Positions 30,284-49,590 of a stretch of DNA of 64,000 bases are shown here, piece by piece (position 1 is the first letter of the stretch; each line of letters starts with the position of its first letter). A model generated the notes under the pieces. The model ran no database searches. It was not told the origin of the DNA and was given only the letters and a program-made list of their open reading frames with translations. A program made the translations under genes and the position numbers. Origin of the DNA: Ceratorhiza oryzae-sativae (lineage: Eukaryota > Basidiomycota > Agaricomycetes > Cantharellales > Ceratobasidiaceae); NCBI GenBank assembly GCA_030998015.1, contig JARWMV010000007.1:1-64000 (forward strand). Direction: 5' to 3'.

Positions 30284-31032
30284 TGTTATGACCCACACTA
30301 ACAGTCATAACATAACAAGGAGTCTAGCCTGTAGTGTATAGCATTTTCCCCATGGTCAAAACAAGCTAGAAACAGGTCATGTGACTCTGGCACTTACCAT
30401 GGTTACCCAACTCACTCCTGCAATTCTCTCCTTTGTAACTTGGAGTGAGGAGCAAGTTGTCACATGACTTCAGTGCTTGCATGGGCACTTACTGTGGTTA
30501 CCCAACTTGCTCCTGCAATTCTCTCCATTGTAACTTGGAGTGAGGAGTGAGTTGTCATGTAACTTTGGCACTTACATGGGCACTTACTGTGGTTACCCAA
30601 CTCACTCCTGCAATTCTCTCCATTGTAACTTGGAGCAAGGAGCAAGTTATCACATGACTTTGGTGCTTAAACCATGTGACCCACAGACCCTGCAGGGCTC
30701 TATAAGATTTGGAGCTGCAACAACCCTAAGAGCAACTTACCTAACTCCTCATGCTATCATGTGACCCCCAATCAACAATCACCCAGTGGCCCCTCATGTC
30801 ACATGACCAGTAAACATTGTTGACTGCAGAACTGTCTGACTTGCCTCACACAAGGATATATAAGAAAACCAAAGCAAGGCTGATGGCCCCAGCTTGCTTT
30901 ATCTTGTCAACCACAGGGGCCACTTGTACATAACACTAGATACATCAATATATACTATAGAAAAACACATAAGAACATAGCCACTACTTAAGGGATCAAC
31001 AAGATGACAGAAGAGACAGAGGGGTCTTGACA
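30284..31032 (+). repeat. Solo LTR of family E (copy E1, 749 bp)
   Basis: Starts TGTTATGACCCACAC and ends GGGGTCTTGACA. Flanks GTTGA (30279-30283) and CTTGA (31033-31037) are a target duplication with one change, and gag of C2 reads across once it is removed. U3 holds three ~95-bp tandem units with CACATGAC-type motifs. A TATATAAG box (about 30856) is followed by CCCAGCTTGCTTTATC, the same start signature as family D. Confidence 0.85.
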
Positions 31033-31075
31033 CTTGATAGTATAGATCCAGTCCCCTTTAGTGAACTGCTCACAT
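31033..31075 (-). pseudogene. Small central Gag piece of C2 between two insertions
   Basis: Minus strand reads ATGTGAGCAGTTCACTAAAG and onward, matching C3 gag near 62040-62085. It includes the left CACAT target duplication (31071-31075) of element D. It proves that gag of C2 continued through this point. Confidence 0.8.
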
Positions 31076-31745
31076 TGTTGTGACCCTCTGGATGCTTCCT
31101 TGCGAAGCACTTAAGTAGTGGCTGCGTTGACAGTTTGGTGCTATGCAGTATGTATTGAGTGTTCTAGTTACAGTGTTTGCTATGGTCTATGGTGGTTGAT
31201 GAGATAAAGCAAGCTGAGGTGTCCAGTCTTGCTTTATCCTTCTTATATATGCCTGTGGCTGTGGTGGCTGTGGATGTATTATCTAAGCACACTCTGCAGT
31301 AGGTGTAGGTTATGTACAGTACTATGGGTTAGGTAATTGTTTGTCTTAAGTTTGTGCGGCTCTGAATCTTATAGAGCTGCGTGAGGTCCAAGGGGTAGGC
31401 GTTGAGGTCACGTGATCCTGCTGTAAGCGCCCAAGATCATGTGACAACTTGCTCCTTGCTCCAAGTAACAATGGAGAGAAATGCTGGAGTGAGTTCAGGG
31501 TAACCACTGTAGGCGCTGAGGTCATGTGATCCTTCTGTAAGCACCATGATCATGTGACAACTTGCTCCTTGCTCCAAGTAACAATGGCGAGAAATGCTGG
31601 AGTGAGTTCAGGGTAACCACCATAAGCGCTGGCTAAGTGCCAAGGTCACGTGACCTTGTTTATGGCTTGTTCTGCTTAGGAAAAATGCCATAAATCTGTA
31701 AAAATATTTGGTTATTTTGTTATGTCCGTTTGACAGGTCATAACA
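31076..31745 (-). repeat. 3' LTR of element D (670 bp)
   Basis: Same ends as the 5' LTR (TGTTATGACCTGTCAAAC...CACAACA on minus). It differs by an extra ~125-bp tandem unit (about 31500-31640) containing a second GAGTTCAGGGTAACC block, and by scattered CG to TG/CA changes. Confidence 0.9.
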
Positions 31746-32054
31746 TTATCCCCCCCTTTGGACATGTCTTGGGGGACCTTGAGACATGGTTTAGATCCTT
31801 ATGCAAAAGGAATCTCATGCACCAAGGAGATTAAGGGTGCTGGACTCGAACCAACAACCTTTCAGCTGATTCAGTATCATTCAATGAGGTCAGGCTGAGT
31901 CAGGCTAGACCCCTTAACCTCTCTGTTACATGAGATTGTTTTTCTTTTCTTTGTTGTGGAGGTTATTTAGGGGTGAGGATTTGTCTGCTTCTTCTCAGAA
32001 TGCCCCAACTGTTTGGATGGGCATGGCAGAAGTTGTACAGTACAGTAGATTATT
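31746..32054 (-). other. Polypurine tract and hairpin/tRNA-like sequence before the 3' LTR of D
   Basis: Directly before the 3' LTR the minus strand reads AAAGGGGGGGATAA, the plus-strand primer. Further upstream (about 31811-31937) a ~125-nt sequence is closed by AATCTCATG/CATGAGATT and a GGTTAAGGG-type stem. It contains GTTGGTTCGAGTCCAGC, a perfect tRNA T-arm and polymerase-III B-box (GGTTCGAGTCC). A convincing D-arm and anticodon arm are lacking, so I do not call a tRNA. Confidence 0.5.
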
Positions 32055-33410
32055 CTAAGGGAATACAAAGAATGGTTTTCCTCCTGCATACACCCATTCC
32101 ACATTTCTTGATACCCATAAGTCCCCTTCTTCACCCTCTATGTCCAACCAACACTTCATGATTGCTGACCAGCTATTTCCCAGAATAACTGTTGGCTATA
32201 CCTTCATTGATTTCACATGTGCGTACCTGCCTGTGAAGTCCGCCTCATACTGGCTCAGGGCCTTGAGCAAGTACTTCCTGTTTGACTGGACCATGTCGTC
32301 CAGGATCCAAATGTCAGCATCTTCCAACAAGTTGCCCACGTTCCACACATTGCACATCCAGCTGTGGCAGCCCTTGGATCATGCATATGCTGTTTTCCCT
32401 GTTCCAGTTTCTCCTTCTATCACCAGGATGTGATGGCGCACCCCTCTTCCCCTCTTCTCGACTTCCTCAGCAAACCATCTGTCTGCTCGGTCGATGTGCT
32501 CCCAGTCTTCTGGGACCTCTAACTCCACAGGGATTGCAGGCATGCAACCCCGGTCTTCCTTGTATGTGTACTTGGCATATGCTCATACTGAGTTCCATGT
32601 TGTCACCATCTGGAGGGGGCGGAGGCGCTTGAATGCCTGGTAGTACTCCTGTTTTGTTGCCAAGGCGACAATCTCCATCCCATCCTCCAAGTCTGCCTCC
32701 ATCCTTGACTGTTTTCCGCCCTTTCCCTTCACCAAGATCTCCTCCAACCTTTCCAAGGTCAGGTCCCCTGCCATCAAATCCTCTATCTCCTTGCCATTAG
32801 CTCCAATGTCCTTCCAGAGATAGTTGAAGGCATCCCTTGCTGGGTTGCCTCCTGGTCCGTCCTTGAGGTCTTTGGGCTGTATGTTGGGGTGTTGCCCCTC
32901 AAAGTCCCAGAACCCTGCGTTCTGGGTGTTCCACCCACCCTTCCGTTCCTGACTGATGGAGAGGGCATGGACGTGCAGGGGCCAGGTTGGGTCGTAGTTC
33001 AGCTCCTCTGGGTTGTGTCATTCGACCACAGCTAAGGTTGCCCAGTGGTTGGGCTGGTGGCAGCAGAACACCTTGTATTGGGCAGCAAGCCCACTTGAGG
33101 GCTGATTGTGTAGCTTCGACCAGGTCAGCAGCACTGCCCTGGTCTGGACATGGAATCGGAGGGCCCATGCAGTTTTGGTCAGCTCTTTGGACCCACGATC
33201 CATCAGTGTAAGCTGTGTAGAAGCGGGTGAGGGGGCTCGGCTTGATTCTGAGGGTGCCAGTGATGGCAATGCTGACCGCCGCCCTGTGCTTGATTCGTTT
33301 GGCTGGGGTGTTCCCATGTTCGAGCCATCTTCGCTTAGCATTGTTGGTGTTTTTTGAGGTAAATGCGTCTTGTGGGGAGGGCATGAAATGATAGCCCCTT
33401 TTACCCCCAA
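32055..33410 (-). pseudogene. rep: CRESS-DNA-type replication initiator (Rep) gene, decayed
   Basis: One register of about 451 codons. The HUH endonuclease motifs are in order: motif I LLTWS (about 33120), motif II HVHAL (about 32965), a geminivirus-like HPNIQ segment (about 32880), and motif III YLWKDIG (about 32810). The superfamily-3 helicase follows: Walker A GETGTGKT (about 32395), Walker B ILDDM (about 32300) and motif C VILGN (about 32180). Known Reps nick and join DNA at an origin hairpin and start rolling-circle replication. Four stops are in frame: TGA at 33018, 32583 and 32379, and TAG at 32196. The ~125 residues before motif I are an unusual extension. It lies inside an LTR element, in sense, without introns. 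Degradation makes function now unlikely. Confidence 0.82.
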
Positions 33411-33866
33411 AGGTGTCCCCTAGATATACCCTTTTCTGGTTGTTGTGATCATGTGGTTTCCTGATGTAGGCTTGTGCTGGTTATGATGCATCTCTGAGGG
33501 GTGCCCTTCCTGTGTTCCCCCGTGTTGGCCTTTCTCCTCACTATGCTCAGGGCCTCCGCTCCTCCACTTCAGTTGGTGCCCCCTCTCCGACCCCTCCAGT
33601 AGTTAGGGGATAGTGTATATTCATGTGACTAGGCTAGGTCATGTGATTCCCATGCTTTGTTGTTTGTTTTCTGGCAGGTGGTCACATGACTAGGCTAGGT
33701 CATGTGATTCCTGTGCTTTTGTTGTTTGTCTTCTGGCAGATGGTCACGTGTCCATTGGTGTCACCTGACCAGACCTTGTTTTGATGTTTGTGCAAGTTAT
33801 TGGGTTGCACCATGATTTTTTAATGTTTGCATTTTTGTTGTTTTCCTTCCTCATCCTGTCTTTACT
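33411..33866. promoter_or_regulatory. Divergent spacer with 62-bp repeats and inverted repeat
   Basis: Separates Rep (minus) from the spliced gene (plus). A ~62-bp unit with a GTTGTTTG...CTGGCAG segment and TGACTAGGCTAGGTCATGTG recurs about 2.3 times between 33620 and 33770. The second unit holds a perfect 9-bp inverted repeat (TCACATGAC 33682-33690, GTCATGTGA 33699-33707, 8-nt spacer), and a TCACGTG-type site follows at 33744. It could be a shared promoter or the remains of a Rep origin. No canonical TAATATTAC nonamer is seen. Confidence 0.5.
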
Positions 33867-34399
33867 ATGCGCGTTATTTCCCTTAACTACAATCCCCTTG
33901 ACTGCACCTGCTGGTCTCTCCCTGAGGGGGAGTACTGTGCCTACTGCAATGCTGTGTGTGATGCCTCCCTTGAAGACTTCTATGAAGGTGTTGGGGATTG
34001 GTTCTTCTGTGGGGTGCCAGGTATGTGTGCTCATTCTTTGTCGTTCTCACATTGCTGACTTGCTCTGTAGAAGAGTGCATCCTCCTTGATGGTCGGGCCC
34101 CTGAGGCCACCCTTGAGTGTGTCTGGGCACTTGTTGATCAGGACTACAAGTCCTTTGAGGAGTGGTCTCACCAGGCTGCTCTTGCCAAATTCTTTGAGGA
34201 GGGCTCTGCTCCCTCATTTGATGAGGCTTCGCCTTTTGTGGCGTCTGGTTCTGGGTGTTTCCAGAACTACATGGCTGACTTCCCAGGGGGGGAGGCCCCT
34301 TGGCTGCGGCCCACTACCCAGTCAGTTGTTCAGACAACTAAGAAGGATAAGAAGGGCAAGAAACCCTATACCTGGCCCCTCAAGGGCAAATGTAAATAG
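33867..34399 (+). CDS. Spliced small Cys-rich/Lys-tailed protein, antisense within element D
   Basis: Exon 1 is 33867-34020 and exon 2 is 34071-34399, giving 160 residues. The 50-bp intron has GTATGT, a branch-like TGCTGAC and TGTAG, all typical of fungi. Splicing joins CGVP to EECILLDG in frame. The N-terminus is cysteine-rich (CTCWSLPEGEYCAYCNAVC, possible metal binding), the middle acidic, and the C-terminus basic (KKDKKGKK, nuclear-signal-like). AATAAA lies at 34433-34438. There is no premature stop. I do not recognise a family. It is transcribed opposite to the retrotransposon and divergently from Rep. Because it is antisense, its intron would survive passage through the element's RNA. 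Confidence 0.65.
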
Positions 34400-34486
34400 T
34401 GAGCAAAAATGTATTAGGTTTGATATGTAAAAAATAAAATAGAACTCTTATACATTTGAGAAAAGAATCCATGAGAGGCACCTTGG

Positions 34487-35416
34487 TCATATGGGGGCTG
34501 GTTCCAACAGTGGCACCTCCTCCAGAGCTTCGACAAGCTCGTTTTCCCACTGGTCCCAGTCCTGTTTGGCTTCCTCTGCAGCTGGGTCCAGGGTGGGTTC
34601 CTTTATTTCTGGCTTGGCTTCTTCCTCAGCCATGACCAGTGATTCTAGGCTTGACATAAGGCTTGTCATATCAGTGTCATAATTGGTGTTTTTGTTTGGG
34701 TGCACCTTCACCCAATTTCAGAAGTTGTTCATCTTTGCCTGCTTTGTCCTGATAGCAGTAAACATCTCATCAGTGGTAGTTGCTTTGAGCAGTCCCACAT
34801 ATGGTGCAGCTGGTGTCAACTTCCATTCTTCCAACAATGCCTTGGCCCAGTTCTCCACCTCCCAGTCCCCCCTGTCTGCCTTTTGGCCTGCGGCCCTCCT
34901 CTGTTGTCTTGCTGCCTTTGCCACCATGTCGACCATTGGTCCCACGATATTGTCAATGACATACATCAGTGTTCTTAGCAAGGCATTTCTTGTTGTTGGC
35001 TTCTGGCTTCCATGCCATGTCAGGACCCCTAACCTGGGATCCAGGTACTTGTCATCGTCGATCCAGTTCCTTTCATCCCTTAACTTCTTTGGGATGTACA
35101 CTAGGTTACCCCCTGGCAACAGTCGCTCGGTGTACCTCTGGGCATCTTCCACGCTGGAGCAGTACATCCCTAGTTTAGGATGATTTTCCCTGCCAGGGTA
35201 GGGTGCTGGCCGCCTAGTGGTGGGTGGCTGCCGAAGTGGGGCCACCTGATTTTCAGCAAGTGGTGTGTAACGGTTGGGATGTGCGACTGGGTGAGTGATG
35301 AAAGGCATGTTTTGGGGTTTCGCAGGTGTATTGTGGTGCAAGTGAGGTGGTAGAGCGGGCTCTGGCCTTTCTTGGGTATCCTGGATGGCTCTTTTTAAAG
35401 CTTTCCAGATCCTCAT
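34487..35416 (-). pseudogene. Unknown 309-residue ORF coupled to the end of pol in element D
   Basis: Starts MRIWKALKRAIQD on the ATG of an ATGA whose TGA ends pol, so it is placed for stop-restart translation. The N-terminal third is Pro-rich. A middle domain follows (GMYCSSVEDAQRYTERLLPG, YIPKKLRDERNWIDDDKYL, LLRTLMYVIDNIVGPMVDMV), then a helical acidic tail (AEEEAKPEIKEP, WENELVEALEEV). One TGA at 34718-34720 (NNF*NWVK) interrupts it, probably a former CGA. No envelope features such as a signal peptide or membrane anchor, and no known domain, are seen. Confidence 0.6.
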
Positions 35417-36237
35417 TTGGTTCTCTTTGGCCTGCCTTTCGAGTCACCTGAGTGCTGACTTGTCTTGACTGGCATTGGTGCATCTGGTAAGCGCCTTTGC
35501 AAGTCATTTAGAACCTCTTTCATGTCAGCAAACTTGCTGGCACATTCCATTGTGTCTTCTATTGGGTCATAGCCCTTCCATCTGATTTGGTAAAACAGCT
35601 TGCCATTCCGCCATTCATAATTTGCAATGTGGTCCACCTCATACTCCTCCTCTCCTTCTTCTGTTATGATTGGTGGTGGTTTGGCCTGCCTTCTTTGGAA
35701 GTCTTTATCTTCTGTGAATGGTGAGAGGAGATTTACATGGAATACATTGTGTACATGTATGGTTTTAGGTAGGTCCAGGTGATATGCATGGGATGAGATC
35801 TTTTCTGTGATTTCAAAAGGGCCCCCTTTTCAGTTGTCCAATTTCTTGGAGGGTCTCTTGGATGAGAGGTTTGTTAGGAGCAGCCAAACCTTGTCTCCTA
35901 CCTTGAATTCCCTCCCTTTCTTTTCCATTTGTTGGTGTAACTCCATTGAGGCTCTTGCCTCATCCCATACCTTTTCCATTTGATTACACATGTTGTCTGC
36001 AGCAGGTGCCTCAGATGGTTCTTCCCCCTCTCAGACAACCCATCTTGGGTTTTTTCCATATACTGTTTCAAATGGGGTTTGTCCTGTTGTAGCATTTATG
36101 TGGTTGTTATGGCAGAATTTGGCAATGGGTAACCATTTTACCCAATCATCTTGTCTATAATTGCAGAAGGTTCTTAAGAACCCTTCTACCCATTGATTTG
36201 TCCTTTCCGACAGTCCATCTGTTTCTGGATGGAAAGT
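35413..36237 (-). pseudogene. 3' part of element D pol: integrase C-terminus and chromodomain
   Basis: Continues exactly in frame from 44497 once the LTR-A4 insertion is removed, giving STTFHPETDGLSERTNQW with the catalytic integrase Glu. The integrase tail (KVGDKVWLLLTNLSSKRPSK) and a chromodomain (YEVDHIANYEWRNG, then YQIRWKGYDPIEDTME) follow. TGA stops at 36031 and 35830 occur where arginine fits. It ends RPKRTK at 35413, overlapping the next ORF. Confidence 0.88.
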
Positions 36238-37289
36238 TGTTATGGATCACTAACATTTTCTATTATTTTAGTCTGCTCTGCCAACCTCAAGTGATGCCTC
36301 TGTAATTAAATTGTGAAATACTTGAATTTGTATGCGCTCTGAATTGTACTATTTTCTGTTCCATTAAATAGTACAAAATTCCCGCTCTCCAACGCATATT
36401 TTATTAAGTTTTTACGATAAGATCTCAGAGAGATACAGAGGTTGCGATATTTCCTCTTATCAGAAGATATTGATTACAACATCGCAACGCCCATATCTCG
36501 GCAACTGCTTACGCTATCAAATCGATCTTGTGCTCTATCGATAGCTAATCTTCGGCGGTATCTGCTGCCCGAAGATCGTCGCGATCCACCGGATCCTCGT
36601 GCCGGAATGGCCTGAAGATCATTAGAATCTTACTGGACCATCAATCAAGATCTAATGACTCCAGTGAGTCAGGAGAGCTTCCCAAATTGATCCAGAAGCT
36701 TCTCTGACTCACTTTATGACTCACTGAGATGTAGCCTCCGTTCATTACATGTATATACTATGATAATATGATCTACAAGCCAATAGCAGGTCTCAGATGC
36801 ATCAATGCCTTTGATCCACACCCTGTCTTTACTCTTTTATCCTATACTGGGCTAGGGTGTACCCCAAGTATAGCAGTACCCTCTTTTGATGATTGCACTG
36901 GCATGCATGCACCTATTTGGCTCTGGAATGCCCTCCTCAGGGTATAAAAGGACCTCCTCTGAGGCCCTTCCAGAGCACCTCCCTCCTCTACTCAACCCTG
37001 ACTGGTTATTGGTTTCTTTTCTCTTTCTATTTCTCTTGTCTGTGTGTGATTTCTTATATAACTAGTACTGAGGAATAAAGTACCATATTAGTTATATACT
37101 GTCTGATTCATTGTATCTTATATACAGAGTTATATAAGGATACAATATTGCCTGATTGAGTGTGACATTAAGTACCAGCTATTAGAGGAAATCTAAGTAC
37201 CTGTAGCTGAGGAAGTACATGCATTAGGCAGCCCTCCATCTGTCCTATAAGCTATCGCTTAAAGTCTAGTATTAAGATTAGTATCAGTT

Positions 37290-37664
37290 TGTCACAAACT
37301 GACATGCATATACCCACTCTATAATATTTTCTCGATTTACTACATTTTATGAGACCATCTTCAAACATACTTGCCTTTTATGGTATATCTGTGTCATGTG
37401 ACTCAGGGAATGTTCCAGACCAGTAACTGAGATGTATTTCAACTCCAGTGTGAAATTCCGCAGTTTCGCAGTCGCTTCTACTGCTTCTATCTCTTATCTG
37501 TCATGACTCACTGTACAGACTTGTTTGTTATGATGTGGCTCATACCATGTATATAAACCAGGTCAAGTTTGCAGAGGACTCCTCAAGAACTTGACCTCTC
37601 GTCAAATACAAGTTCTTTCATTTTCTTACTATTTTCCTTGTTGCCTGACTTGTCGTCGTCGACA
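37290..37664 (+). repeat. 5' LTR of C1 (375 bp)
   Basis: TGTCACAAACTGACATGC...GTCGTCGTCGACA. Contains TATATAAA (37550-37557) and a predicted transcript start near 37583. Confidence 0.95.
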
Positions 37665-37681
37665 TCAGGTCAAGTTCTTGA
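37550..37681 (+). promoter_or_regulatory. TATA box, transcript start and self-primer/PBS pair of C1
   Basis: TATATAAA at 37550. TCAAGAACTTGACCT at 37583-37597, 33 bases downstream, is the exact reverse complement of AGGTCAAGTTCTTGA at 37667-37681, three bases after the LTR. No tRNA-type TGG site is present. In Tf1/sushi elements the mRNA 5' end folds onto the primer site and is cleaved to prime reverse transcription, and this arrangement matches that. Confidence 0.75.
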
Positions 37682-38029
37682 CAATCGTAAGTCTCAGTGT
37701 CGTCTGGGATACTTCTGGAACGCTGTTGGTGTCGTCTCGAGATAACTCCCTGTTGCCTTCCCCAATCCTACTCCACCTATCCACAGCCACAAGATATCGT
37801 TGCCCTATACGCACCTCTGTGAAACCTTGCATAGCCAGGTCCCTCACACATCGTAACAAGCTTTGGTTCTCTAATCTCTTTTGTCGACAAGAGGTGGGGT
37901 TGCTCATTGCCCTTAAGTAGCTGAGCAACGGAGGTCACCTTCCTATTCCAATAGACTCGGGAAAGGGTCTATTTTTCCTTTATCTTGATCTTGCTCAAGT
38001 ACGTCTCTGACGGAACGCACGGCCCTCAA

Positions 38030-38925
38030 GTGGCACAACCTTTTACAGAAGACCAGCGCTGCTGTTTGTGTGGGTGGTTTGGACACCTGTCGATCCACTG
38101 CTTCACCCTTAACTCAGTTGAAAGTATCCTTGAAGAAGCTGGGCACATCGATTTCAACTGAGTAGTAATTATCAAAGTCCGCCCCCAAAGAGTCGGACGC
38201 GCCCAACAAGCCTTTGTCACCGAGCCAGGCACCCCTGAGTGCAAAATTTGCCATCGGGCAAACGGAGCCACCTTCCCAGCGCACTGCCCTTATTGTCCTA
38301 AGAAGGACAAATTCCTTTATTACTACACCATCCCCCGCAACCAGCTATAAGCTGGAGAACCTCGGCCAACAGCTTCTTCGTCACCTGCTAAACACTATCG
38401 AAAACTTCCAAGACAGGTACCATTATTACCAGAATAAGTATGAAGAAACCCGTGAAAAACTTCATGAAGCTGAGGCCCGTTGCACATACTTAACTGAGCG
38501 TTTGTGTGAACACCAGGAGGACTACCTATCCCTCCTCCAAGACCATCTCAGACTAGAAGCTATAGTCCGAGAAACAATTGAACCCCACGAGTATGCCTTC
38601 CCCGTCTTCTCAATGCCGTCAGACCTCCCTCACCCCACCTTTCTAAGTGGCACAGGCTTGCCAATTCAGGAAGAAACACCCCTTCCAGCAGCCCAAATCA
38701 ATCCTCCCCAAGGAAGCACTCCTTTGGGATCCAACTAAACTAAAGAGGGTGGAGTGCCCATATCGTTGCCAAGACACCAAAAGTTGGGACTTGGACAATA
38801 CTTGGTTGAGATTCGCGGGAATAGGGGACTTCGAAATTTATAGACTTGTGAGGGGAACAGAAATCTTTTATTATCAAAACAATTCTCAATTCCCTGTACT
38901 TCCTTACCGTCTCCGTCACCTTTAA
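38030..38925 (+). pseudogene. ORF0 of C1: zinc-knuckle, helical and C-terminal domains upstream of gag
   Basis: Three conserved segments lie in successive +1 frames. The first (from 38030) has CCHC CLCGWFGHLSIHC and a second Cys/His cluster (CKICHRANGATF, then CPYCPKK). The second (from about 38340 to the stop at 38738) is helical, coiled-coil-like (ENFQDRYHYYQNKYEETREK, YLSLLQDHLRLEAIV). The third ends 38925 (WDPTKLKRV, then FYYQNNSQFPVLPYRLRHL). The same segments and offsets occur in C2 and C3. In C1 the ATG reads GTG and a TGA interrupts the first segment. A nucleic-acid-binding accessory protein is plausible; function unknown. Confidence 0.6.
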
Positions 38926-38949
38926 AAATCTACTCAAGTCCTTTCTGAA

Positions 38950-40341
38950 ATGGCATCACCAACCCCTGCCCCTGCTTGGGCAAATATGTCTGATGGAGAT
39001 AAGGTCATCTATATGCTTCAATCAATGGACGAACTGCAAGAGCAAACCAATAATCTCCAAAACAATATTGGGGACGTCGAACACAATAATAAGACCTACA
39101 CAGACTCACTCGAGGCCAAACTTACCATGAATCAGACAAAAATAGATGCGGATGTGGCTGGATTAGCCACCAATGTCAACAATCTAGTGGGAATGTTAGC
39201 CATTCTCCAAACCACTATCACACGCATTGAAGCGCAAATCAACACCTCCACAAGTGGCTCAGGTACTGCTCAAGTACTAGCTCCCTCCAGTACAGCCCAA
39301 CCACAACCAACAGCACCTACTCCCTCTGGAGGGTCGACTGCAAAGGTTAAGATGGCTGCCCCTCAAAAGTTTGATGGCACAAAACGGGAAGACGCCATCT
39401 CATTCAGAATTGCATGTGCCCGATACATCAATACAAACATGAGTGGGCATTCGGCCAATCAAGTGGTTGCCTTCATCACCTCTTATCTTGAAGGGTCAGC
39501 AGCTGAATGGGTTAATTCGTATGAAGAATTCAAAATTTTAAACCCTGGGACTGCGATCCCCTGGCTTCACAATGCCAACCTGTTCTGGCAAGAATTTACT
39601 ACCCGTTATGGGGACCTGAACCGCACCGAAAATAACCGCAACAAGTGGCGGAAACTGAAACAATCCAAGACGGTTCAGGATTACCTTACCCTATTCAACC
39701 TATACTCAACTGGGCTCAACTACAATGATGCAGCTATGCGTGATCAATTCTACGATGGTTTGTCATCTGATGTAACAGACAGCATGGTAGCCCAAAATTA
39801 CAATCCCCACACAAAGACATTTGCCCAGCTCACACAGCGGGCCCTGGAAATTGACTGCCACCTCATTTCTTTCGGTAGCAAGAGGACATCTCATGGGGGT
39901 AACAAGTCCAGCAGCAACAATACTTCAACCAGCAGGCCCACGAATAACCCCCAAGGCGCTCCCCAAAAGGAGAAATTCAAGAATGGGGAACGAGTATACA
40001 AGATTAAAGATGGAAGGGCTGTAAAAGGTCAAATTGTAGCCATTGGGCCCAATGCAAAGGGCTTCACGGTTCCAACCATCTGCTATGATGGCAGTAATGC
40101 CAACATACAAGAATCCTTCAAAGACATAAAGAAGGATAACCATCCGCCAGTGGCCCCCAAGGCAAAGGATCCAGATGCAATGGATCTGGATAGCACAGGA
40201 AAAGGGAAGGGTACAAACACCTGCTACAACTGTGGAGGCCGCGGCCACATTGCCGCCAAATGCCCTTCAGCCAAGATGTCAGGATACAAGGCAGCGGTTG
40301 AGGATGTAGAAACAACCGACGACGAGTCGGTAAAAGAATGA
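38950..40341 (+). CDS. gag: Gag of element C1, intact (463 aa)
   Basis: Opens MASPTPAPAWANMSDGDKVI. Residues ~25-105 form a helical coiled-coil region, ~110-130 a Pro/Ser/Thr linker, and ~135-310 a capsid-type retrotransposon Gag domain (FDGTKREDAISFRIACARYI, then LFWQEFTTRYGDLNRTENNR). A module with GERVYKIKDGRAVKGQIVAI follows. The CCHC zinc knuckle CYNCGGRGHIAAKC is at 425-438, with an acidic tail. No stops. Its TGA overlaps the pol ATG (ATGA at 40338-40341), so pol is probably translated by stop-restart. Gag assembles the particle and binds element RNA. Confidence 0.93.
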   Translation: MASPTPAPAWANMSDGDKVIYMLQSMDELQEQTNNLQNNIGDVEHNNKTYTDSLEAKLTMNQTKIDADVAGLATNVNNLVGMLAILQTTITRIEAQINTSTSGSGTAQVLAPSSTAQPQPTAPTPSGGSTAKVKMAAPQKFDGTKREDAISFRIACARYINTNMSGHSANQVVAFITSYLEGSAAEWVNSYEEFKILNPGTAIPWLHNANLFWQEFTTRYGDLNRTENNRNKWRKLKQSKTVQDYLTLFNLYSTGLNYNDAAMRDQFYDGLSSDVTDSMVAQNYNPHTKTFAQLTQRALEIDCHLISFGSKRTSHGGNKSSSNNTSTSRPTNNPQGAPQKEKFKNGERVYKIKDGRAVKGQIVAIGPNAKGFTVPTICYDGSNANIQESFKDIKKDNHPPVAPKAKDPDAMDLDSTGKGKGTNTCYNCGGRGHIAAKCPSAKMSGYKAAVEDVETTDDESVKE

Positions 40342-43300
40342 GCTCAAACCATGCCAGGGGGGCGGTCTTGGGCGCTATGTTACAAAATGCGCATAATGAA
40401 AATAAAAATATGGAAATGGAATGTATGTCGTTAGGAAACCAATCACAACTACAGTTTTTCTTTCATGCATTCCCTCTGCACATAACCCCTGAACACAAGT
40501 CTGCATATAACATGAAAAAATTCAACGGATGGGCCATGATTGACTCAGGGGCCACATCAGTATTTATACATGAAGATTTGGTTAAACAATACTGTATTCC
40601 TACCGTCACCCTAAAAACACCCAAGAAACTGAGGGTAATCAATGGAAGGGAGATAGACTCTGGGTCTGTGACCCATTACTGCACCTTTGAAGTGTGCATT
40701 CAAGAGCACCGAGAGATCCTCAGTGCCTATGTTGTGAACATCAGCAAAAATGATTTAGTCCTGGGCATGTCATGGCTCAAATTCCATAACCCTGACATTG
40801 ATTGGGATGAAAAAGACATGAAGTTCAACTTGCCAATATGCCTGAAGCATTGCATCACAAAACCCTTGCACATGCGTGCAAATGAACCTAAGGAGCTTCA
40901 GCTGGACTCCCTAGGCTCCCTCCCAACAAAATATAAAGAATTCCAGAAAATATTTGCTGAAGAAGACGACGTCCAACCATTACCACCCCATAGAAAGTGG
41001 GATATGGAAATAGATTTAAAACCAGATGCCAAGCCAAGGCATGGTCCCATATATAGCATGGGTGTCAAGGAAGATGCAGAATTGCACAAAACCTTGGATC
41101 GCCAACTGAAAGCAGGGCATATCAGACCCTCAAGGTCACCAATGGCATCCCCAGTCATATTTGTCAAAAAGAAGAATGGGAAGTTGCACATGTGCATCGA
41201 CTACCAACAACTAAACGAAATGACAGTCTCTAATGTGTATCCACTCCCACGCATCAATGATATAGTGGAGACTCTGTGTGGGGCAAAGATATTCACCAAG
41301 TTTGATCTAAAGTGGGGCTTCAACCTCATACGAATTCGGGAAGGGGACGAATGGAAAGCAGCTTTTAAGACCAAATATGGGCTGTACGAGCCCTTAGTCA
41401 TGCAATTTGGTCAAAAGAACACACCAGGAACCTTCATGGCCATGATCCAGGAAGAGTTCCAAGACATTGAGGGCATCTATGTTGTAATCTATATGGACGA
41501 CATACTAGTATTTTCCAAAAACCAAGAAGAACATGATGAACATGTCAAGGAAGTCTTACATCGCCTCCAAAAGGCTGGCCTATATCGTGCCCTGGAGAAG
41601 TGTGTTTTCGATGTCACCGAAGTTGATTACCTGGGAATAGTGGTGACTCCCCAGGGAATTAAAGTAGACCCAGCCAAGGTCGAAAAAGCTGTTGAATGGC
41701 CAACCCCTACCAACCCAACCGAAGTCCTGGAAGGGTTAGGGTTTGCAAATTGGTTGAGGCACTTCATAAAAGATTTTTCGAAAATTACAAGATGTCTTTA
41801 TGAGCTGGTCAAGAAGGATGTAAAATGGGAATGGACAGAAGAAAGGGATCAGGCATGGAACCTGCTGAAGCAGAAATTAAAAGAAGCCCCCCTCCTAATT
41901 CAGCCAGAACCCAACAAACCATTCATTTTGGAAACGGACACCTCAGGCTATGCCACAGGCGCTGTATTATTGCAATATGGAGAGGACGGAATGCTCCACC
42001 TGATCTCCTATTACTCCAAGGCAATGGTCCCAGCAGAAAGGAATTATGATATCTACAACAAAGAAATGCTGGCAATTATAAAGGCTCTCAAACACTGGTG
42101 TCACTTGCTAGAAGGGGCTGAACACCCGGTAAACATTGTTTGTGACCACAAGAATCTGGAGTATTGGAAGACGAATCGGCCACTGAACGGCGGAGTCACA
42201 CAGTGGCATGAGTTCTTATCCAGGTTCAAATTCAAGATTCTATATATTGAAGGGGTGAAGAATGGCCAGGCAGACATACTCTCTAGGCTGTCAAGGCACA
42301 TCCCTAAAGAGGGGGGTGAGAGCCAAGCTCTGCTTGCGCAAAACCAATTTTTGGAGCTAAAATCACTATGCCTGCAAGCAATCACGCCAGACAATGACCT
42401 GGAACAACTCATTAGGGATGCTATCCCAGGGGACGAGCACCTGTCAAAAGTGCTAAAAGTCCTAGACGACAATGAAAAGGTCAAAAACTGGGAATGGGAT
42501 GAAGGACTTTTACGATACAAGGGCTGAATCTATGTCCCAAATAACAAAGAACTTCGCAAACTGATCATTGAAAGCCGTCACGACAACCCAGCTGCAGGAC
42601 ACCCAGGACAATTCAGAACATACGAATTGTTAAACCGCAAATATACATGGTCATCAATGAAAAAATCAGTCAACGAATATGTCACACATTGCGAATCATG
42701 TATTAGGAATAAGCACAGCAACCAGGTCCCCCCAGGGCTCCTAAACCCAATACCAGCACCAGAAAAACCTTGGGAGGAAATTACTTATGATCTGATCACC
42801 GGGCTACCCCTGTCAGAGGGGTTTGACGCCATATTTACAGTTGTCGACTGCCTGACAAAAATGGTCCACTTTATTCCATGTCAATCGGAAGCCAGTGCTA
42901 TGGATTGCGCCAACTTGTTCCTAACATATGTATGGAAACTTCATGGGCTACCATGGAAAACAATCTCAGACCATGGCCCCAACTTTGCATCCAAATTCTT
43001 AAGGCACTTATACAAACGACTGGATATAAAACCCTCCTACTCCACAGCATACCACCCTCAGACAGATGGCCAGTCCGAACAGGCCAACCAAGTAGTGGAA
43101 GGGTACATCAGACACTATGTATCAGACAGACAAGACGACTGGGTCTTGCTCCTACCATTGGCTGAATTTGCCTACAATAATGGTGTCAACGCCTCAACTG
43201 GCAAATCACCATTCTTCGCAAACTACGGCTTCCACCCAAGGCTAGCAGTTGGGGACAGGGAGGAACCAGAACTCCCTTTAGCGGACAACCATGCAGAATG

Positions 43301-43868
43301 GCTCCAAAAAGGCCATGATGAACTTAAGGCAGCTCTGGAAATAGCAAACCAGAGGATCAAGGAATACTACGACCAGAAGCATCGGACTCCTGAAGCTATT
43401 AAGGTTGGAGACAAAGTCTGGCTTGATACCAAAAACATACGGACACAGCAGGCCTCCAGGAAACTGGCCCACAAAAGAGTTGGACCATTCAGGGTGGTAG
43501 CACAACATGGCACACATGCCTACAAACTGGACCTACTGATAACCATGAAAATACACCCAGTGTTTCATGTCTCACTCCTCACCAGATATAAAGACGACCC
43601 CTATGGCTGTCAGGTTCCCCCACCACCACCTGTGGTAACTCCTGAAGGGGAGGAAGAATTTGAAGTGGAACAGATCATAAAGTCACAATACAACAAAAGA
43701 TCTAACGTCTTCAAATACTATGTCAAGTGGCTCGGCTATGATGAGCGACAATGGTTAACCTATGATGACCTGGTGAACGCACCAGAACTCACTGCCGACT
43801 ACATCAAGTCGCACCCAAAGGCACCCCAGGACCCCCGTGCCTTGAAGGGGGGAAGTGTCACAAACTGA
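40338..43868 (+). pseudogene. pol: Pol of element C1 (PR-RT-RNase H-IN-chromodomain), one stop codon
   Basis: 1176 residues with a single TGA at 42525-42527 (RYKG*IYVPNN, likely a former CGA). Protease has DSGATS at residue 69. RT has FVKKKNGKLHMCIDYQQLN and YMDD near 385. RNase H (FILETDTSGYATGAV near 530, NIVCDHKNLEYW) follows. The integrase zinc finger is HDNPAAGHPGQ, then HCESCIRNKH. The core has ITYDLITGLP, ISDHGPNFASKF and GQSEQANQ, the three acidic residues. The chromodomain (EEFEVEQIIKSQYNK, then YYVKWLGYDERQWLT) is at ~1108-1160. The frame runs 13 bases into the 3' LTR across the polypurine tract GAAGGGGGGAAG. Confidence 0.93.
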
Positions 43869-44230
43869 CACACATATACCCACTCTATAATATTTTCTCG
43901 ATTTACTACATTTTATGAGACCATCTTCAAACATACTTGCCTTTTATGGTATATCTGTGTCATGTGACTCAGGGAACGTTCCAGACTGGTAACCGAGATG
44001 TATTTCAACTCCAGTGTGAAATTCCACAGTTCCGCAGTCGCTTCTACTGCTTCTATCTCTTATCTGTCATGACTCACTGTACGGACTTGTTTGTTATGAT
44101 GTGGCTCATACCATGTATATAAACCAGGTCAAGTTTGCAGAGGACTCCTCAAGACCTTGACCTCTTGTTGAATACAAGTTCTTTCATTTTCTTACTATTT
44201 TCCTTGTTGCCTGACTTGTCGTCGTCGACA
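43856..44230 (+). repeat. 3' LTR of C1 (375 bp)
   Basis: Same ends and length as the 5' LTR. Notable differences are AACGTTCC versus AATGTTCC and TACGGAC versus TACAGAC (CG sites), and one change in the self-primer copy (CAAGACCTTG). Confidence 0.95.
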
Positions 44231-44496
44231 CAGTTAGTCCAAGCGACTAGGGCTGAACTACATTTAAGATATCTAAGGGAACCTGACCATAGTAGTCTTG
44301 CTCTTTATACCTATAAATTAGTCAGTTTACACTGTGAAAGATTAAGACTACCTTGAGTGTTACTTGATCGCATTGCAACTACTTTGAGCCTTCTTACTCT
44401 AGTCTAAGAAGTATTGAGTACAATTAGTGTATACTAACATATCTACATTTGCTTAAGCTCTAGATATTCAAGTATACCCTGACCCGTAACAAAAGT

Positions 44497-47067
44497 GGTG
44501 GAGAATCTGGGCTTTATCCCAATTCCCTTGTATAGGGCTTTTAGGAATTGGCTGTTAAAGGTTGGCCCTCAGTCTGAGACAGTGGTTTCTGGGGTCCCGT
44601 GATGTCTCCATACCTCCCTTATGAATATTTCTGCCAGTTCTTCTGCATTGGTGCTCTCCAGACATGGTACAAAATGGGCCTGCTGGGAGAAGCGATCTAC
44701 AACTGTCAAGATGCTGTTGTACCCCTTTGAGACAGGTAATTTGATGATGAAATCATATGCGACATCTGCCCATGGTTTCCATGGGATTGGTAAGGACTTC
44801 AGGGGAGTGCCTTGTTTGTGTCCTTTGCTTCTTTGACATGTTTCACAAGATTCCACATATTGGTTTACTTGGGCCTTCATTCCTGGCCAATAGTAATCCC
44901 TTGATAGTAATTCTAGTGTTTGGGCTTGTCCCCAGTGACCTGCCACAGGGGCATCATGGCACTCCTCAAGGAGACTCAACCTCAAGTCCTTATCATCTGG
45001 GATGTAGAGCCTATTGTCATACCTTAATAGGCCCTCCTTCATTTTGTACTGTCTAAATTCCTTCTGTACTGAGGGTGGTAGTTGTTCTTTATTTGCCATG
45101 CTCAGCCTTAAGGATCTGATAGATTCATCTTCTTCCTGAGCTTCTTTAAGCTCTTCCCAGAAATTCCCCTGTACTTCTGCCTTGAAACCTATGAACCTTT
45201 CTTCTGGAATCATGATCTGTGGTTCCATAGGGGTATCTCCATGGTTGCTCCTTCTGGAAAGGGCATCTGGCTTCTGTGAGAGTTTCCCTGGTCTATACAC
45301 AATCTGAAAATTGAAGGGTGCCAGAGTGAGATACCATCTGGTGTGCCTTCTATTCCACATCTGGGCATTTTGCCAGTACTGGAGGTTCCTATGGTTGGTG
45401 TATATCACAATAGGTTCCTCTGTCCCTTCTAGGTATAACCTCCAGTGCTCTAAGGACCTAACAATTGCAAGCAACTCCTTGTTGTAGGTGTCATAATTTT
45501 TCTCTGGTGGGGTGAAGCTCTTCAATAGGAAGGCAATTGGATGCAATCAGTTGTCATCACCCTTTTGGCTTAGTACCACCCCCATGGCCACTCCTGAGGC
45601 GTCTGTTTCCAGTATGTATGGCTTGTTTGGGTTTGGGTGGATTAGGACTGGTTCTCTTGCTACTGCTTCTTTGATAGCTTCAAATGCTTCCTGTTGTTTT
45701 CTTTCCCACAGGAATTTGACATCTTTTTGAGTGAGATCTGTGAGGGGTTTGGCTAAGGTACTAAACTTCTCTATCCACCTTCTATAGAACCCCATGAAGC
45801 CTAGGAATGCTTGGACTTCTTTTACTGTGTTAGGTTCTGGCCATTCTAGAACTGCCTTTACCTTTTCCTTTTCCATTGATATCCCTTCTGGGGATATGAC
45901 AATTCTGATGAAGCTTACCTCCTTCACAAAGAACTGACACTTGTGTGGTTTGAGGAAGAGGTGGTTTTCCCTCATTCTTCTTAACACTTCCCTGACATGT
46001 TGTACATGTTCTTTCCTGTTTCTGGAAAACACTAGTACATCGTCCATGTAGATTACCACATAATCATCTATTATGTCACAGAACTTTTCCATCATGAACC
46101 TTGTAAAGGTTCTTGGTCCTTCCTTTACTCTGAATGGCATGACCAAGCATTCAAACTGGCCTTCTCCTGTCCTGAAAGCTGTTTTCCATTTGTCTCCCTC
46201 TTTTACCCTGATGTTGTTGAACCCCCATCAAACATCCATTTTTGAATAGATGGTTGCGTCCTTCAGTCTCTCAATCAATTCTATTTGGATTGGAAGTGGA
46301 AACCTGTCTGGCTTGGTGATGTCATTCATCTTACAGTAGTCGACTACCAACCTAAGCCCTCCATCTGCTTTGTTCACATAGAAACAGGGTGCAGCTACAA
46401 CTGACTGGCTGGGCCTTATTTTCCTGTTTCTTAGTTCCTCCTCTAGGTACTCCCTGAGCGCCTTTGTTTCTGCTGGCAACATACTGTACCTCTTTGCAGG
46501 CTTTGGCAGCTCCACTCCCTTGATCAGGTCCATTTTGAAGTCCAGGTTACCTCGGTGGGGTGGAAGTTCTCGGAAACCTTCTTCCCCAAATAGGTCTTCA
46601 AAATCCCTAAATTCTTCTGGGATTTGTAGGCTTTCACTTGCTGCCCTTGCCTTGATTTCGTCTTGGTATGAGATGGTAAGGTCTTTCCAATCTATGATAG
46701 GTTCTGCTTCTTCAAGCCATTCTTTCCCTAGGACTATGTCTGTGTCGCCTAGGGTCATCACATAAAGGGAGCATTTCAGTGTCTTCCCTTCCACTTCAAT
46801 ATTTAGTTCTGCCCTTTCTTCTATGGCATCCTTGATTTCATTTCCATCAATGGCCACAATTGATTTCTTGTGTTTCAGGGGAGTGGTTGGAATCCCCTTT
46901 TCCCTTGAATAGGCCTTATCAATGAAGTTGGTTGAAGATCCTGAGTCAATCAGTGTCTTTGCTGGTTCCATGATTCCCTCTACTGTAGTGTATATTATTG
47001 ATTGATTACTAGACTTCTTGAGGTAACATACATCTGTGGTAGGGGTTATATCAGGGTCCTCCAACAT
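44497..47067 (-). pseudogene. 5' part of element D pol: PR, RT, RNase H, integrase core
   Basis: Starts MLEDPDITPTTDV, 17 bases after the gag stop. Protease is TLIDSGSSTNFID; RT has CFYVNKADGGLRLVVDYCK and YVVIYMDDVLVF. RNase H is YILETDASGVAMGVVLSQ, NKELLAIVRSLEHW and IYTNHRNLQYW. Integrase has a zinc finger (CHDAPVAGHWGQ, then CETCQRSKGH) and core (DVAYDFIIKLPVSKGYNSIL). In-frame TGA stops at 46228, 45547 and 44569 fall where the family has Arg (e.g. SD*GPTF for SDRGP). No indels across 1132 codons including the part at 35413-36237. This is a different chromovirus lineage from B and C. Confidence 0.9.
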
Positions 47068-47084
47068 GGAAGTGGTAGGACCAA

Positions 47085-48920
47085 TTAGTTTTCCAACTCA
47101 GAGCTGCTTTCTTCCTCAACTTGTCTGCTGGCCTTCCCTTGTATCTTAGCTTTGTCGTAGGTCCACTGGCCTCAGCACTCCTTCAGGACATGACCTGATT
47201 TACTGCATTTGATACAGAGTCCTTCTTTCCTTCGCCTGTCCTTTTCACTGTTTGGTATCCTTACCATGTTGTTGGTTTGGGTATTCCCCTGTTTGCCACT
47301 GGTCCCTGAAGGCTTGTTCCCCCCTTGTTTGTATTTCGCTGGTGCCCAGGTTGAATTTGATGAGTTGCTGGTCCTTGCATTCATTTTCTGGTTTGCAAAC
47401 TGCATGTTGTCCATTTTGCAGGCAAAGTCGATTAATTGATCTAAGGTATATGATGGACCTTCAGCCTCATTTGACAGTACTTCAATCCTTAAGATCTCTT
47501 GTCGTACTTCAGGTTTTAACCCTTCCCTGAATTGGTCCTTGAGGGCTTCCTGGTTCCAGTCTACCTCTTGGATCAGGATCTGGAATTGGGTAGCATAATC
47601 CAATGCACTCTTGGTTTGTGTTAATTTCCTTAGTTTCCAGATGGTCTTTTCCTTTATGACTGGGTTGTTAAAAGCATCCAGGAATCCCTTCCTGAAATCC
47701 TTCCAGGATGCAAGAATACCTGTGTGTTTGCCTGCTAGTAGTTTCCGGCAGTAAGGTTGTGCCCAGTTTGCTGCTTCCCTGTCCTCCATGTTCATTAACA
47801 CAGCAGATATCTTTTTTTGGTCATCAAAGGCTGATTTGTCATAGTCAGCAAAGAAAAGTTCCATGCTGATTATGAAGTTCTCTGCTTCCTTCCCTTTTTT
47901 CCCATTAAATTTGCTGGGTCTCCCTAGTCGCGCCTCCTTAGGAGTGTGGTTTGTGGCAAGGGTAGGTTGGTTTGCTTGGGATGGAGGTTCTGTTCAGGGT
48001 CTTATTGTGGACTCAGCCTGGAAGGTTCTTCCCAGAAAGGGTGTTCATACTGGGGAGGCTGAGGCGGATTGTGAGGGGCTTCCTATGACCACCCTAGTTC
48101 TTCCCCTGGTCTCTTCTGTCCTTTCCCTTGGCCTTCCTGCTTCAGTTGTTTTCTGGAGCTCATTTCCTAGATCAGTTACCTGTTGTTCTAGTGCGATTAG
48201 GATCTCCCCTGTGTTTTCAGTTTTCTTCTCTAAGCTTTTGAGCTTTTGCTCTTGCATTCCCAGTACCCGGTTTATTTCCATGGAGATGTCCTTTAATTCT
48301 TTTATCAGGTTCCCCATTTCTGCTTTTAGGTTGTCCTGGTTCTTTGCCACATAGAGGACATTTTTGTTGGATGTTTCCATTGACCTTACCATCCAGTCCA
48401 CATTTCCTTCTTGTTGGGTTAGTGATATTTGACACTGATTTATACCCATGATTGCCGTTTCTAGTTCCCTATGGTTATTGTCTCTAAGTTCCTTGAGCCC
48501 CGCCCTGATGGTGGTGGCAATGGTGTGAATAGGGTTGGCAGTGGCTATGGTTCTGGGACCTGGCTGGGGTTGTGTCCTTGCCTCTTCTGCCAAGGCTGTG
48601 CCTTGTTCATATATGGTTCAGGTCATATCTTCTACCTCATCCCTCTCTGGATTTGAGATATCTTCTGGGTCTGGATTTATCAGGTGAATTGGCAGTTGAG
48701 GGCTGCATAGTGGTATTCCCCCTATTTGCCCTCCCAGGATGGGGGCCCGAGTGGGGTTAGGTTGAGCCACTGGTCATGGGTTTTGTGGCAACCCCCCTGG
48801 CATTCCTTGGAGGGTCTCATCTGGGTTACCTTCAGCCTCTGGGGAAGCAATGGGTTTGGGTGATTGTGGCCTACTATTTGCCACTCTGCTTTGAGATTGA
48901 GTTTGTGGTCTCTGTGACAT
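47085..48920 (-). pseudogene. Gag of element D
   Basis: A single register of 611 codons from MSQRPQTQSQSRVAN to the TAA at 47085-47087. The N-terminal part is Pro/Gln-rich. A long helical segment follows (48593-48150, e.g. LKELRDNNHRELETAIMGIN). The capsid domain is FNGKKGKEAENFIISMELFF and AANWAQPYCRKLLAG to about 47450. The zinc knuckle is CIKCSKSGHVLKEC (about 47175-47215). TGA stops at 48774, 48618, 48045, 47994 and 47172 are the only lesions. The gag frame of element F (62829 onward) has a similar N-terminus and helical segment. Confidence 0.85.
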
Positions 48921-49021
48921 AGTTTCTTTGTGTTCTCTTATGTATCACAGGAGTTAGCTGGTTTCTTGTGTACTCAGCCCTTAGTATCTGTGTAGTATAC
49001 TTATGTTTGCCACTAGTTAAG

Positions 49022-49214
49022 TTAAGAGCTTGCTTTATAATGTTGTGACCCTCTGGATGCTTCCTTGTGAAGCACTTAAGTAGTGGCTGCATTGATGGTT
49101 TGGTGCTATGCAGTATGTATTGAGTGTTCTAGTTACAGTGTTTGCTATGGTCTATGGTGGTTGATGAGATAAAGCAAGCTGAGGTGTCCAGTCTTGCTTT
49201 ATCCTTCTTATATA
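49022..49214 (-). promoter_or_regulatory. TATA box, transcript start and self-primer/PBS pair of element D
   Basis: Minus strand: TATATAAG at 49214-49207; AGCTTGCTTTAT at 49180-49169, about 34 bases on; and its exact 12-base complement ATAAAGCAAGCT at 49038-49027, two bases after the LTR end at 49041. No tRNA-type TGG site. This has the same logic as C1 with unrelated sequence. Confidence 0.68.
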
Positions 49215-49585
49215 TGCCTGTGGCTGTGGTGGCTGTGGATGTATTATCTAAGCACACTCTGCAGTAGGTGTAGGTTATGTACAGTACTATGGGTTAGGTA
49301 ATTGTTTGTCTTAAGTTTGTGCAGCTCTGAATCTTATAGAGCTGCGTGAGGTCTGAGGGGTAGGCACTGAGGTCACGTGATCCTGCCATAAGCGCCAAGA
49401 TCACGTGACAACTCGCTCCTCGCTCCAAGTAACAATGGAGAGAAATGCTGGAGCGAGTTCAGGGTAACCACCGTAAGCGCCGAGGTCACGTGACCTTGTT
49501 TATGGCTTGTTCTGCTTAGGAAAAATGCCATAAATCTGTAAAAATATTCGGTTATTTTGTTATGTCTGTTTGACAGGTCATAACA
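49041..49585 (-). repeat. 5' LTR of element D (545 bp)
   Basis: Right flank CACAT (49586-49590) pairs with 31071-31075. U3 has three palindromes TCACGTGA (49373, 49401, 49486). The 3' LTR has several of these as CATGTG. Confidence 0.92.
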
Positions 49586-49590
49586 CACAT

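What the first reader, a model, noticed from the sequence alone, without database searches (positions are those of the whole stretch)
31071..49590. An LTR retrotransposon that carries a CRESS-DNA-type Rep gene between pol and its 3' LTR
Element D is bounded by two near-identical LTRs and perfect CACAT target duplications, with a polypurine tract at the 3' LTR and a primer site at the 5' LTR. The rep-like gene and two other ORFs are therefore inside the transposed unit and not a neighbouring insertion. Rep-like integrations in fungal genomes are known; one riding inside a Ty3/Gypsy element as part of its gene set is, as far as I know, not described. It could reflect one-off capture of a ssDNA replicon or a lineage with two replication modes.
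Basis: partly seen in the sequence, partly recalled or inferred. Interest (0 to 1): 0.95.

Follow-up and report, generated by a model that had tools for sequence, protein, structure and literature searches.

The report
Fungal LTR retrotransposon carrying Rep gene
A family of fungal retrotransposons carries, as a regular and selected part of its gene set, a gene that looks like the DNA-replication starter of small single-stranded DNA viruses, which joins two kinds of selfish DNA thought to copy themselves in different ways.

Summary
Confirmed and extended. The window holds a Ty3/Gypsy chromodomain element with a CRESS-like Rep gene between pol and the 3' LTR. It is not a one-off: both LTRs were resolved in 7 of 15 elements examined in the host genome; all 7 have different perfect 5-bp duplications and carry Rep. 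At least 109 Rep loci are listed (lower bound); 32 of 98 scored Rep matches have no stop. Rep shows purifying selection between two clades of open copies (dN/dS 0.07-0.19); ORF3 and a spliced antisense gene give about 0.2 between diverged copies. Rep and the antisense gene diverge from a region with a hairpin and CGGAG repeats, like a ssDNA-replicon origin. Corrections: the 'ATGA coupling' is seen in 2 of 9 copies read; an 8.3-kb insertion interrupts integrase; this copy's Rep is broken. Named Rep relatives are all Ceratobasidium. Rep's class rests on motifs and a sub-threshold geminivirus-domain match; structure prediction failed. Ten full-text searches showed no Rep in an LTR element; rotifer Terminons and a truffle DNA transposon are nearest. 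Rolling-circle use is inferred, not shown.

The parts
31071..31075 (.). Target-site duplication, 3' side (ATGTG on the element's sense strand)
31076..31745 (-). 3' LTR (670 bp) with internal tandem repeats, TATA box and self-priming complement AGCTTGCTTTAT
31746..31760 (-). Polypurine tract CAAAGGGGGGGATAA
31820..31925 (-). tRNA-like stem with a conserved T-arm in the 3' untranslated tail; no Rfam or ARAGORN hit
32055..33341 (-). CRESS-like Rep gene (HUH motifs plus SF3-type helicase motifs), 429 codons with the stop; broken in this copy by 3 TGA and 1 TAG
33342..33866 (.). Intergenic region between divergent Rep and antisense gene; candidate origin/bidirectional promoter; hairpin CCCCTAACTACYGGAGGGG at 33591-33609
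33867..34020 (+). Antisense gene, exon 1 (154 nt)
34021..34070 (+). Antisense gene, 50-nt intron (GTATGTG...GCT[AG]AC...TGTAG), conserved
34071..34399 (+). Antisense gene, exon 2; spliced product 160 aa, Cys-rich start, basic end; no Pfam match for the L036 version
34487..35443 (-). ORF3 (about 318 aa in open copies; interrupted by TGA at 34718-34720 here); no homologue found in one protein search
35413..36234 (-). Integrase C-terminal part with chromodomain
36235..44497 (+). Later nested insertion block inside integrase, including another Ty3 element (LTR matches 37290-37664 / 43856-44230); not part of the element
44498..47067 (-). pol: protease, RT (YMDD read by eye), RNase H, integrase N-terminal part; frames broken
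47172..48593 (-). gag (Ty3 capsid-like), frames broken
49027..49040 (-). Self-priming PBS TTATAAAGCAAGCT
49041..49585 (-). 5' LTR (545 bp; shorter by tandem-repeat number)
49586..49590 (.). Target-site duplication, 5' side (ATGTG)

Best explanation
This is a self-primed Ty3/Gypsy chromovirus of a probably Ceratobasidium-like fungus. An ancestor captured a CRESS-type replicon module: Rep, an intergenic origin-like region and an opposite-strand spliced gene. The family has kept the module as working genes. Shown by sequence: the whole unit, cargo included, lies between LTRs and target duplications in independent insertions; many copies across subfamilies carry it; Rep, and less strongly ORF3 and the antisense gene, evolved under purifying selection. 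Inferred: Rep is made from its own promoter in the intergenic region, binds the CGGAG repeats, nicks at or near the hairpin, and so acts on extrachromosomal (probably circular) DNA of the element, raising the amount of element DNA or template. The antisense product is probably a partner or regulator.
For: Both LTRs resolved in 7 of 15 elements, all 7 with distinct TSDs and Rep. At least 109 Rep loci; 32 of 98 scored Rep matches without a stop. Of 40 antisense-gene loci, 29 have a Rep match within 1.5 kb on the other strand by coordinates, 5 more a full-length Rep when fetched, 1 a Rep beyond an insertion, 2 a partial one, 3 none in range (one at a contig end). Rep dN/dS 0.07-0.19 at dS 0.40-0.51 between two clades of open copies; fixed differences in Rep 12/5/55 by codon position between those clades. 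HUH His, His, Tyr and Lys codons kept in 21-22 of 22 copies. Six ordered motifs in 11 of 61 relatives, 0 of 300,000 shuffles. Gemini_AL1_M match over 96 of 107 positions just before Walker A, E 0.001. Intron in the antisense gene only. Hairpin plus CGGAG six times in 190 bp of L036; no 5-mer so extreme in 500 shuffles.
Against: No Pfam, PDB or PHROG hit above threshold. Unrelated Pfam families score about as well in single members (Jiv90 E 0.0048, P53_TAD 0.0052), and nSTAND3 matches more members (21 of 41 against 10 of 41 at E up to 1). Genome scans with PF08283 and PF00799 did not ring at the listed Rep loci. Both structure predictions were useless (pLDDT 35 and 38). The hairpin loop is not a canonical nonanucleotide (recalled) and the wider region folds no better than shuffles (z +1.48). 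CGGAG is weak in decayed copies (W 2, L030 1). ORF3's codon-position signal is weak (20/11/28 fixed against 47/39/61 polymorphic), the antisense gene's too (3/3/7 against 33/30/55). Walker B second Asp reads Asn in 8 of 22 copies. L033, L047 and L054 have no Rep in range and L040 has Rep without matches to ORF3 or the antisense gene. No expression, protein or circle data.
Confidence: 0.55

Rival explanations
1. Rep is selected but does not replicate the element: as a nickase/helicase or DNA-binding protein it helps cDNA processing or integration, regulates transcription from the intergenic region, or interferes with competing ssDNA replicons or changes the host cell cycle.
For: Purifying selection shows a protein function but not which. 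The intergenic region has a promoter-like TATATAG in 7 of 10 aligned copies. Antisense ORFs of plant LTR elements are thought to be regulatory (PMC7264820, passages).
Against: Conservation of HUH and Walker A residues and an iteron-like array next to a hairpin fit a nicking origin better than mere DNA binding.
Confidence: 0.3
2. Passenger cargo: an old captured Rep module that simply rides along, without function for the element.
For: Many copies have broken frames (66 of 98 matches with stops); no open Rep was found among the window's own clade in the 22 copies aligned.
Against: dN/dS 0.07-0.19 between two clades and third-position excess of fixed differences; 32 of 98 matches without a stop; stops nearly all TGA as expected from CpG decay after insertion.
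Confidence: 0.05
3. Rep sits in its own DNA transposon or integrated ssDNA virus that inserted once into an LTR element.
For: A geminivirus-like DNA transposon with TIRs exists in truffle (PMC3198968, passages).
Against: No repeats flanking Rep were found in the window or L036; same junctions in independent elements; cargo inside all 7 TSD-bounded elements resolved.
Confidence: 0.03
4. The Rep-like protein is not a CRESS Rep but an unrelated NTPase with look-alike motifs.
For: No above-threshold profile or structural match; unrelated families score similarly in single members. The ordered motif pattern fits 11 of 61 relatives, 10 of the 28 with 380 aa or more.
Against: Shuffles 0 of 300,000 (pattern loosened once after a first version matched 0 of 61); Gemini_AL1_M aligns nearly end to end in the 6 members whose positions were shown, best E 0.001.
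Confidence: 0.07

Closest known systems
Tf1/sushi-type Ty3/Gypsy chromoviruses (class recalled)
   Same: gag, protease, RNase H, integrase, chromodomain, 5-bp TSD, PPT, self-priming PBS complementary to the LTR
   Different: Three extra genes (ORF3, spliced antisense gene, Rep) and an origin-like region before the 3' LTR
Terminons (giant retroelements of bdelloid rotifers; PMC6431247, passages read)
   Same: Retroelements in which rolling-circle Rep proteins occur as accessory genes; the review says this may point at circular intermediates
   Different: Endonuclease-deficient, telomeric, up to 40 kb, Penelope-like without LTRs (the last recalled)
Geminivirus-like DNA transposon of Tuber melanosporum (PMC3198968, passages read)
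   Same: Multicopy fungal transposon with a geminivirus-like Rep
   Different: 37-bp TIRs and transposase genes, no obvious TSD; not an LTR element
Plant LTR elements with antisense or extra ORFs between pol and 3' LTR (Grande, RIRE2, Retand; PMC7264820 and PMC11963269, passages read)
   Same: Conserved extra ORFs in the same place and partly antisense
   Different: The passages read mention no Rep, and the word intron was not found in either text; plants
Genomoviruses/geminiviruses (recalled)
   Same: Rep motif order, central domain like Gemini_AL1_M, divergent gene across an intergenic region with hairpin and repeats
   Different: No recognised capsid gene, no canonical nonanucleotide, chromosomal and LTR-bounded

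Membership tests
Ty3/Gypsy chromovirus | LTRs, 5-bp TSD, PPT and PBS | tested here: met
   TSDs in 7 of 7 elements with both LTRs resolved
Ty3/Gypsy chromovirus | gag (Ty3 capsid), protease, RNase H, integrase zinc-binding domain, chromodomain after integrase | tested here: met
Tf1-type self-priming | PBS complementary to start of LTR transcript | tested here: met
   12-nt complement in the window's LTR, TATA about 34 nt upstream by my count; PBS in 8 of 8 copies whose 5' LTR end was seen; priming and transcript start not tested
CRESS-DNA Rep | HUH endonuclease motifs I-III with catalytic His-His and Tyr | tested here: met
   (motif definitions recalled)
CRESS-DNA Rep | SF3 helicase Walker A, B and motif C | tested here: met
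   Walker B second Asp reads Asn in 8 of 22 copies
CRESS-DNA Rep | Above-threshold match to a Rep profile or Rep structure | tested here: inconclusive
   Gemini_AL1_M 19.5 bits against cut-off 24; PF00799 nothing; structures unusable
CRESS-DNA virus | Hairpin with canonical nonanucleotide at the origin | tested here: not met
   conserved hairpin has a different loop (canonical motif recalled)
CRESS-DNA virus | Capsid gene | tested here: inconclusive
   antisense gene product has no Pfam match; no structure made
Rep-bearing DNA transposon (truffle type) | Terminal inverted repeats round Rep | tested here: not met
Terminon | Penelope-like retroelement without LTRs (recalled) | tested here: not met
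   LTRs and Ty3-type integrase present
Helitron | RepHel protein over 1,500 aa | tested here: not met
   Rep about 429 aa; 5-bp TSDs

The most novel reading that the evidence does not exclude
A hybrid replicon: the element moves as an LTR retrotransposon, and its circular DNA is also amplified by its own Rep from an internal iteron-plus-hairpin origin, so one genome uses both reverse transcription and rolling-circle replication.
Probability: 0.25. Interest if true: 0.95.

Novelty: new variant of a known kind. Interest (0 to 1): 0.82.

Why it matters
LTR retroelements and Rep-based ssDNA replicons are usually treated as separate realms. A family in which both gene sets travel and evolve together, in many copies of one fungal genome, gives a direct test of whether one selfish element can use two replication systems. 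It also gives a route by which Rep genes persist in fungal chromosomes, and a natural intron-marked antisense gene that fits passage of the unit through sense RNA.

Tried and rejected
Two AlphaFold runs on the Rep family (alignments A1 and A2) gave pLDDT 35 and 38, so no fold search was made. Viral contigs gave no relative of Rep in 3 scans; a fourth, with A2, could not be run. ORF3 had no homologue at E 0.001. Whole-genome scans with PF08283 found two short sub-threshold matches not at listed Rep loci, and PF00799 found none there or in the controls. Rfam and ARAGORN did not name the tRNA-like tail. The 'ATGA coupling' was considered and rejected as a family feature. P0029's tail as a homologue of the antisense gene is only suggestive (E 0.002 in a single comparison). 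The first version of the Rep motif pattern matched 0 of 61 proteins because of a Trp in Walker B; it was loosened once and then matched 11 of 61. CGGAG was picked after looking at the alignment; the 500-shuffle control for the best of all 5-mers was run on L036 only. A second LTR seen in the C19 copy turned out to be a solo LTR of the other subfamily with its own duplication AAGCC; C19's own 5' LTR runs out of the fetched stretch.
Full report
What was claimed.

The element itself. The 3' LTR is 31076-31745, the 5' LTR 49041-49585, with ATGTG duplicated on both sides. They differ in number of internal tandem repeats and align at 95% over 459 nt and 89% over 237 nt. A purine tract ends at the 3' LTR. 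The PBS directly after the 5' LTR, TTATAAAGCAAGCT, contains the exact complement of AGCTTGCTTTAT in the LTR, which lies about 34 nt after a TATA box by my count. The PBS is present in all 8 copies whose 5' LTR end was seen. This is the layout of self-primed Tf1/sushi-type elements (recalled). Pfam finds Ty3 capsid gag, aspartic protease, RNase H, integrase H2C2 and chromodomain. The integrase gene is split by an 8.3-kb insertion, 36235-44497, which holds another Ty3 element.

Other copies. The host genome (48.8 Mb, 253 contigs, unnamed) was searched. The cargo segment gave 69 matching pieces from 40 scored of 208 candidates, at 88-94% identity apart from the window itself. I read ten copies in two chunks each and later ones from other subfamilies. 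Both LTRs could be resolved in 7 of 15 elements examined (the window, 4 of 10, 2 of 4). All 7 have different perfect 5-bp duplications and all 7 carry Rep. As a sample chosen by pol and not by Rep, 6 loci absent from the list were fetched: 5 have ORF3, antisense gene, intergenic region, Rep, tail and LTR in the same order; the sixth, L033, stops in the antisense gene. Six more were fetched by Rep: 5 have the whole set, and L040 shows Rep, tail and LTR but no match to ORF3 or the antisense gene. Of 39 integrase-ORF3 junction loci, 24 are shown to have Rep downstream (21 by coordinates, 3 by fetching), L033 lacks it in range, and 14 were not examined. Of 40 antisense-gene loci, 29 have a Rep match within 1.5 kb on the other strand by coordinates; the other 11 were fetched: 5 have a full-length Rep, 1 has its Rep beyond an insertion, 2 a partial Rep, and 3 none in range, one of these at a contig end. 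The union of lists gives at least 109 Rep loci. All such counts are lower bounds because the tool scores only part of its candidates.

Rep. An ordered pattern of six CRESS motifs fits 11 of 61 relatives (10 of 28 with 380 aa or more; others include fragments and altered gene models), against 0 of 300,000 shuffles of one member. In 22 copies the two His, the Tyr and the Lys of the HUH site and the Walker A Gly-Lys are kept in 21-22; Walker B is less well kept (20 and 13 of 22). The Pfam profile Gemini_AL1_M aligns over positions 11-106 of 107 just before Walker A, but under its cut-off (19.5 against 24 bits, E 0.001); unrelated families reach E 0.005 in single members. Other profiles, PDB and structure prediction did not help. 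In a protein database of 5.8 billion sequences 61 relatives were found; all those with a species name are Ceratobasidium (AG-Ba, 395, 428, 394, 414, UAMH 11750), the rest carry no species name (JGI and lgn sources) (in one search only the 7999 best candidates were scored). The host is therefore probably a relative of Ceratobasidium (inference).

Selection. Between three Rep clades, fixed differences fall on codon positions 12/5/55, 11/10/54 and 3/8/16; single-copy changes within clades fall 25/13/36 and 27/32/48 (pooled first and third comparison against 25/13/36, p 0.005). Six of the 22 aligned copies have an open Rep, from two clades; between these clades dN/dS is 0.07-0.19 at dS 0.40-0.51, against 0.32-0.51 within clades, where decay after insertion weighs more. 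ORF3 gives 0.22-0.23 between types and 0.17-0.49 within (4 open copies); the antisense gene gives 0.17-0.33 for L036 against seven others, with some closer pairs up to 1.05 (8 of 15 open copies used). Codon-position counts for ORF3 and the antisense gene are weak. Using open copies only favours low values somewhat. Thirty-two of 98 Rep matches have no stop; stops in the rest are nearly all TGA, as CpG decay would give. So Rep was a working gene while the family diversified; for the other two the case is fair but weaker.

The antisense gene. Exon 1 is 154 nt and the intron 50 nt in 19 of 21 copies; in L035 and L037, which have one base fewer before the donor, my splice pattern did not match. 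Splicing gives an open frame of at least 160 aa in 16 of the 19, with GTATGT-like, branch-like and TGTAG signals. An intron can survive in an antisense gene while the whole unit passes through sense RNA, and Rep, a sense gene, has none; both fit RNA-mediated copying.

Intergenic region. The hairpin CCCCTAACTACYGGAGGGG is present unchanged in 25 of 55 loci held, which are 23 distinct elements; many of the 55 do not cover it and some copies have changes in it. In the three little-decayed copies tested, CGGAG or its TGGAG form occurs six times with spacing 9, 31, 36, 27, 51-52 (0 of 1000 shuffles reach the CGGAG count in each); in L036 six CGGAG lie in 190 bp against four in the other 5,081 bp, and no 5-mer in 500 shuffles is as extreme. 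In the two decayed copies tested it is weak (W 2, 21 of 1000; L030 1, 137 of 1000). The loop is not a canonical nonanucleotide (recalled) and the wider region does not fold better than shuffles.

Modules. Integrase ends are about 96% identical between the subfamilies read, while ORF3 (71-86%), the antisense gene (85-89%), Rep (83-89%) and LTR (about 78-91%) differ and are combined in different ways, as template switching would give (inference).

Mechanism. Shown: independent LTR- and TSD-bounded insertions of the whole unit and selection on Rep. Inferred: Rep works on the intergenic region of the element's DNA. Rivals are listed. Literature: ten full-text searches (listings of an open-access library) did not show a Rep gene in an LTR retrotransposon. 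Nearest are Terminons with Rep (PMC6431247, passages) and a truffle Rep transposon with TIRs (PMC3198968, passages); extra antisense ORFs are known in plant LTR elements (PMC7264820, PMC11963269, passages).

Noticed in passing
31820-31925 (-), and tails of L030, L032, L035-L038, L040: A tRNA-like structure (T-arm GTTGGTTCGAGTCCAGC and an 11-bp closing stem in the window) between Rep and the 3' LTR, kept in both subfamilies while the middle was replaced; 4 of 21 predicted pairs have double changes in 8 sequences.
   Followed up: partly
33384-32899 (-); P0005, P0008-P0010, P0013 and others: A second reading frame overlapping the N-terminal part of Rep is kept in Ceratobasidium gene models (core like SPRAKFFAAYADGSRVRRADR), which suggests an overprinted ORF.
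   Followed up: no
36235-44497: Nested insertion block: a Ty3 element with at least 375-bp LTRs, flanked by about 1.05 kb and 0.27 kb of other sequence within the same interruption of integrase.
   Followed up: partly
30337-30992 (+): Diverged LTR-like sequence (71-72% to the 3' LTR) in opposite orientation, with a 95-bp tandem repeat, right beside the element.
   Followed up: no
L035-L039: Integrase ends are nearly uniform between subfamilies while cargo genes and LTR differ: a mosaic of modules.
   Followed up: partly
C19 copy (L017): A solo LTR of the other subfamily with duplication AAGCC sits downstream of the PBS in one element.
   Followed up: partly
50024-50515 (-): Gag-like ORF of yet another Ty3 element just outside the 5' LTR (by eye).
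   Followed up: no
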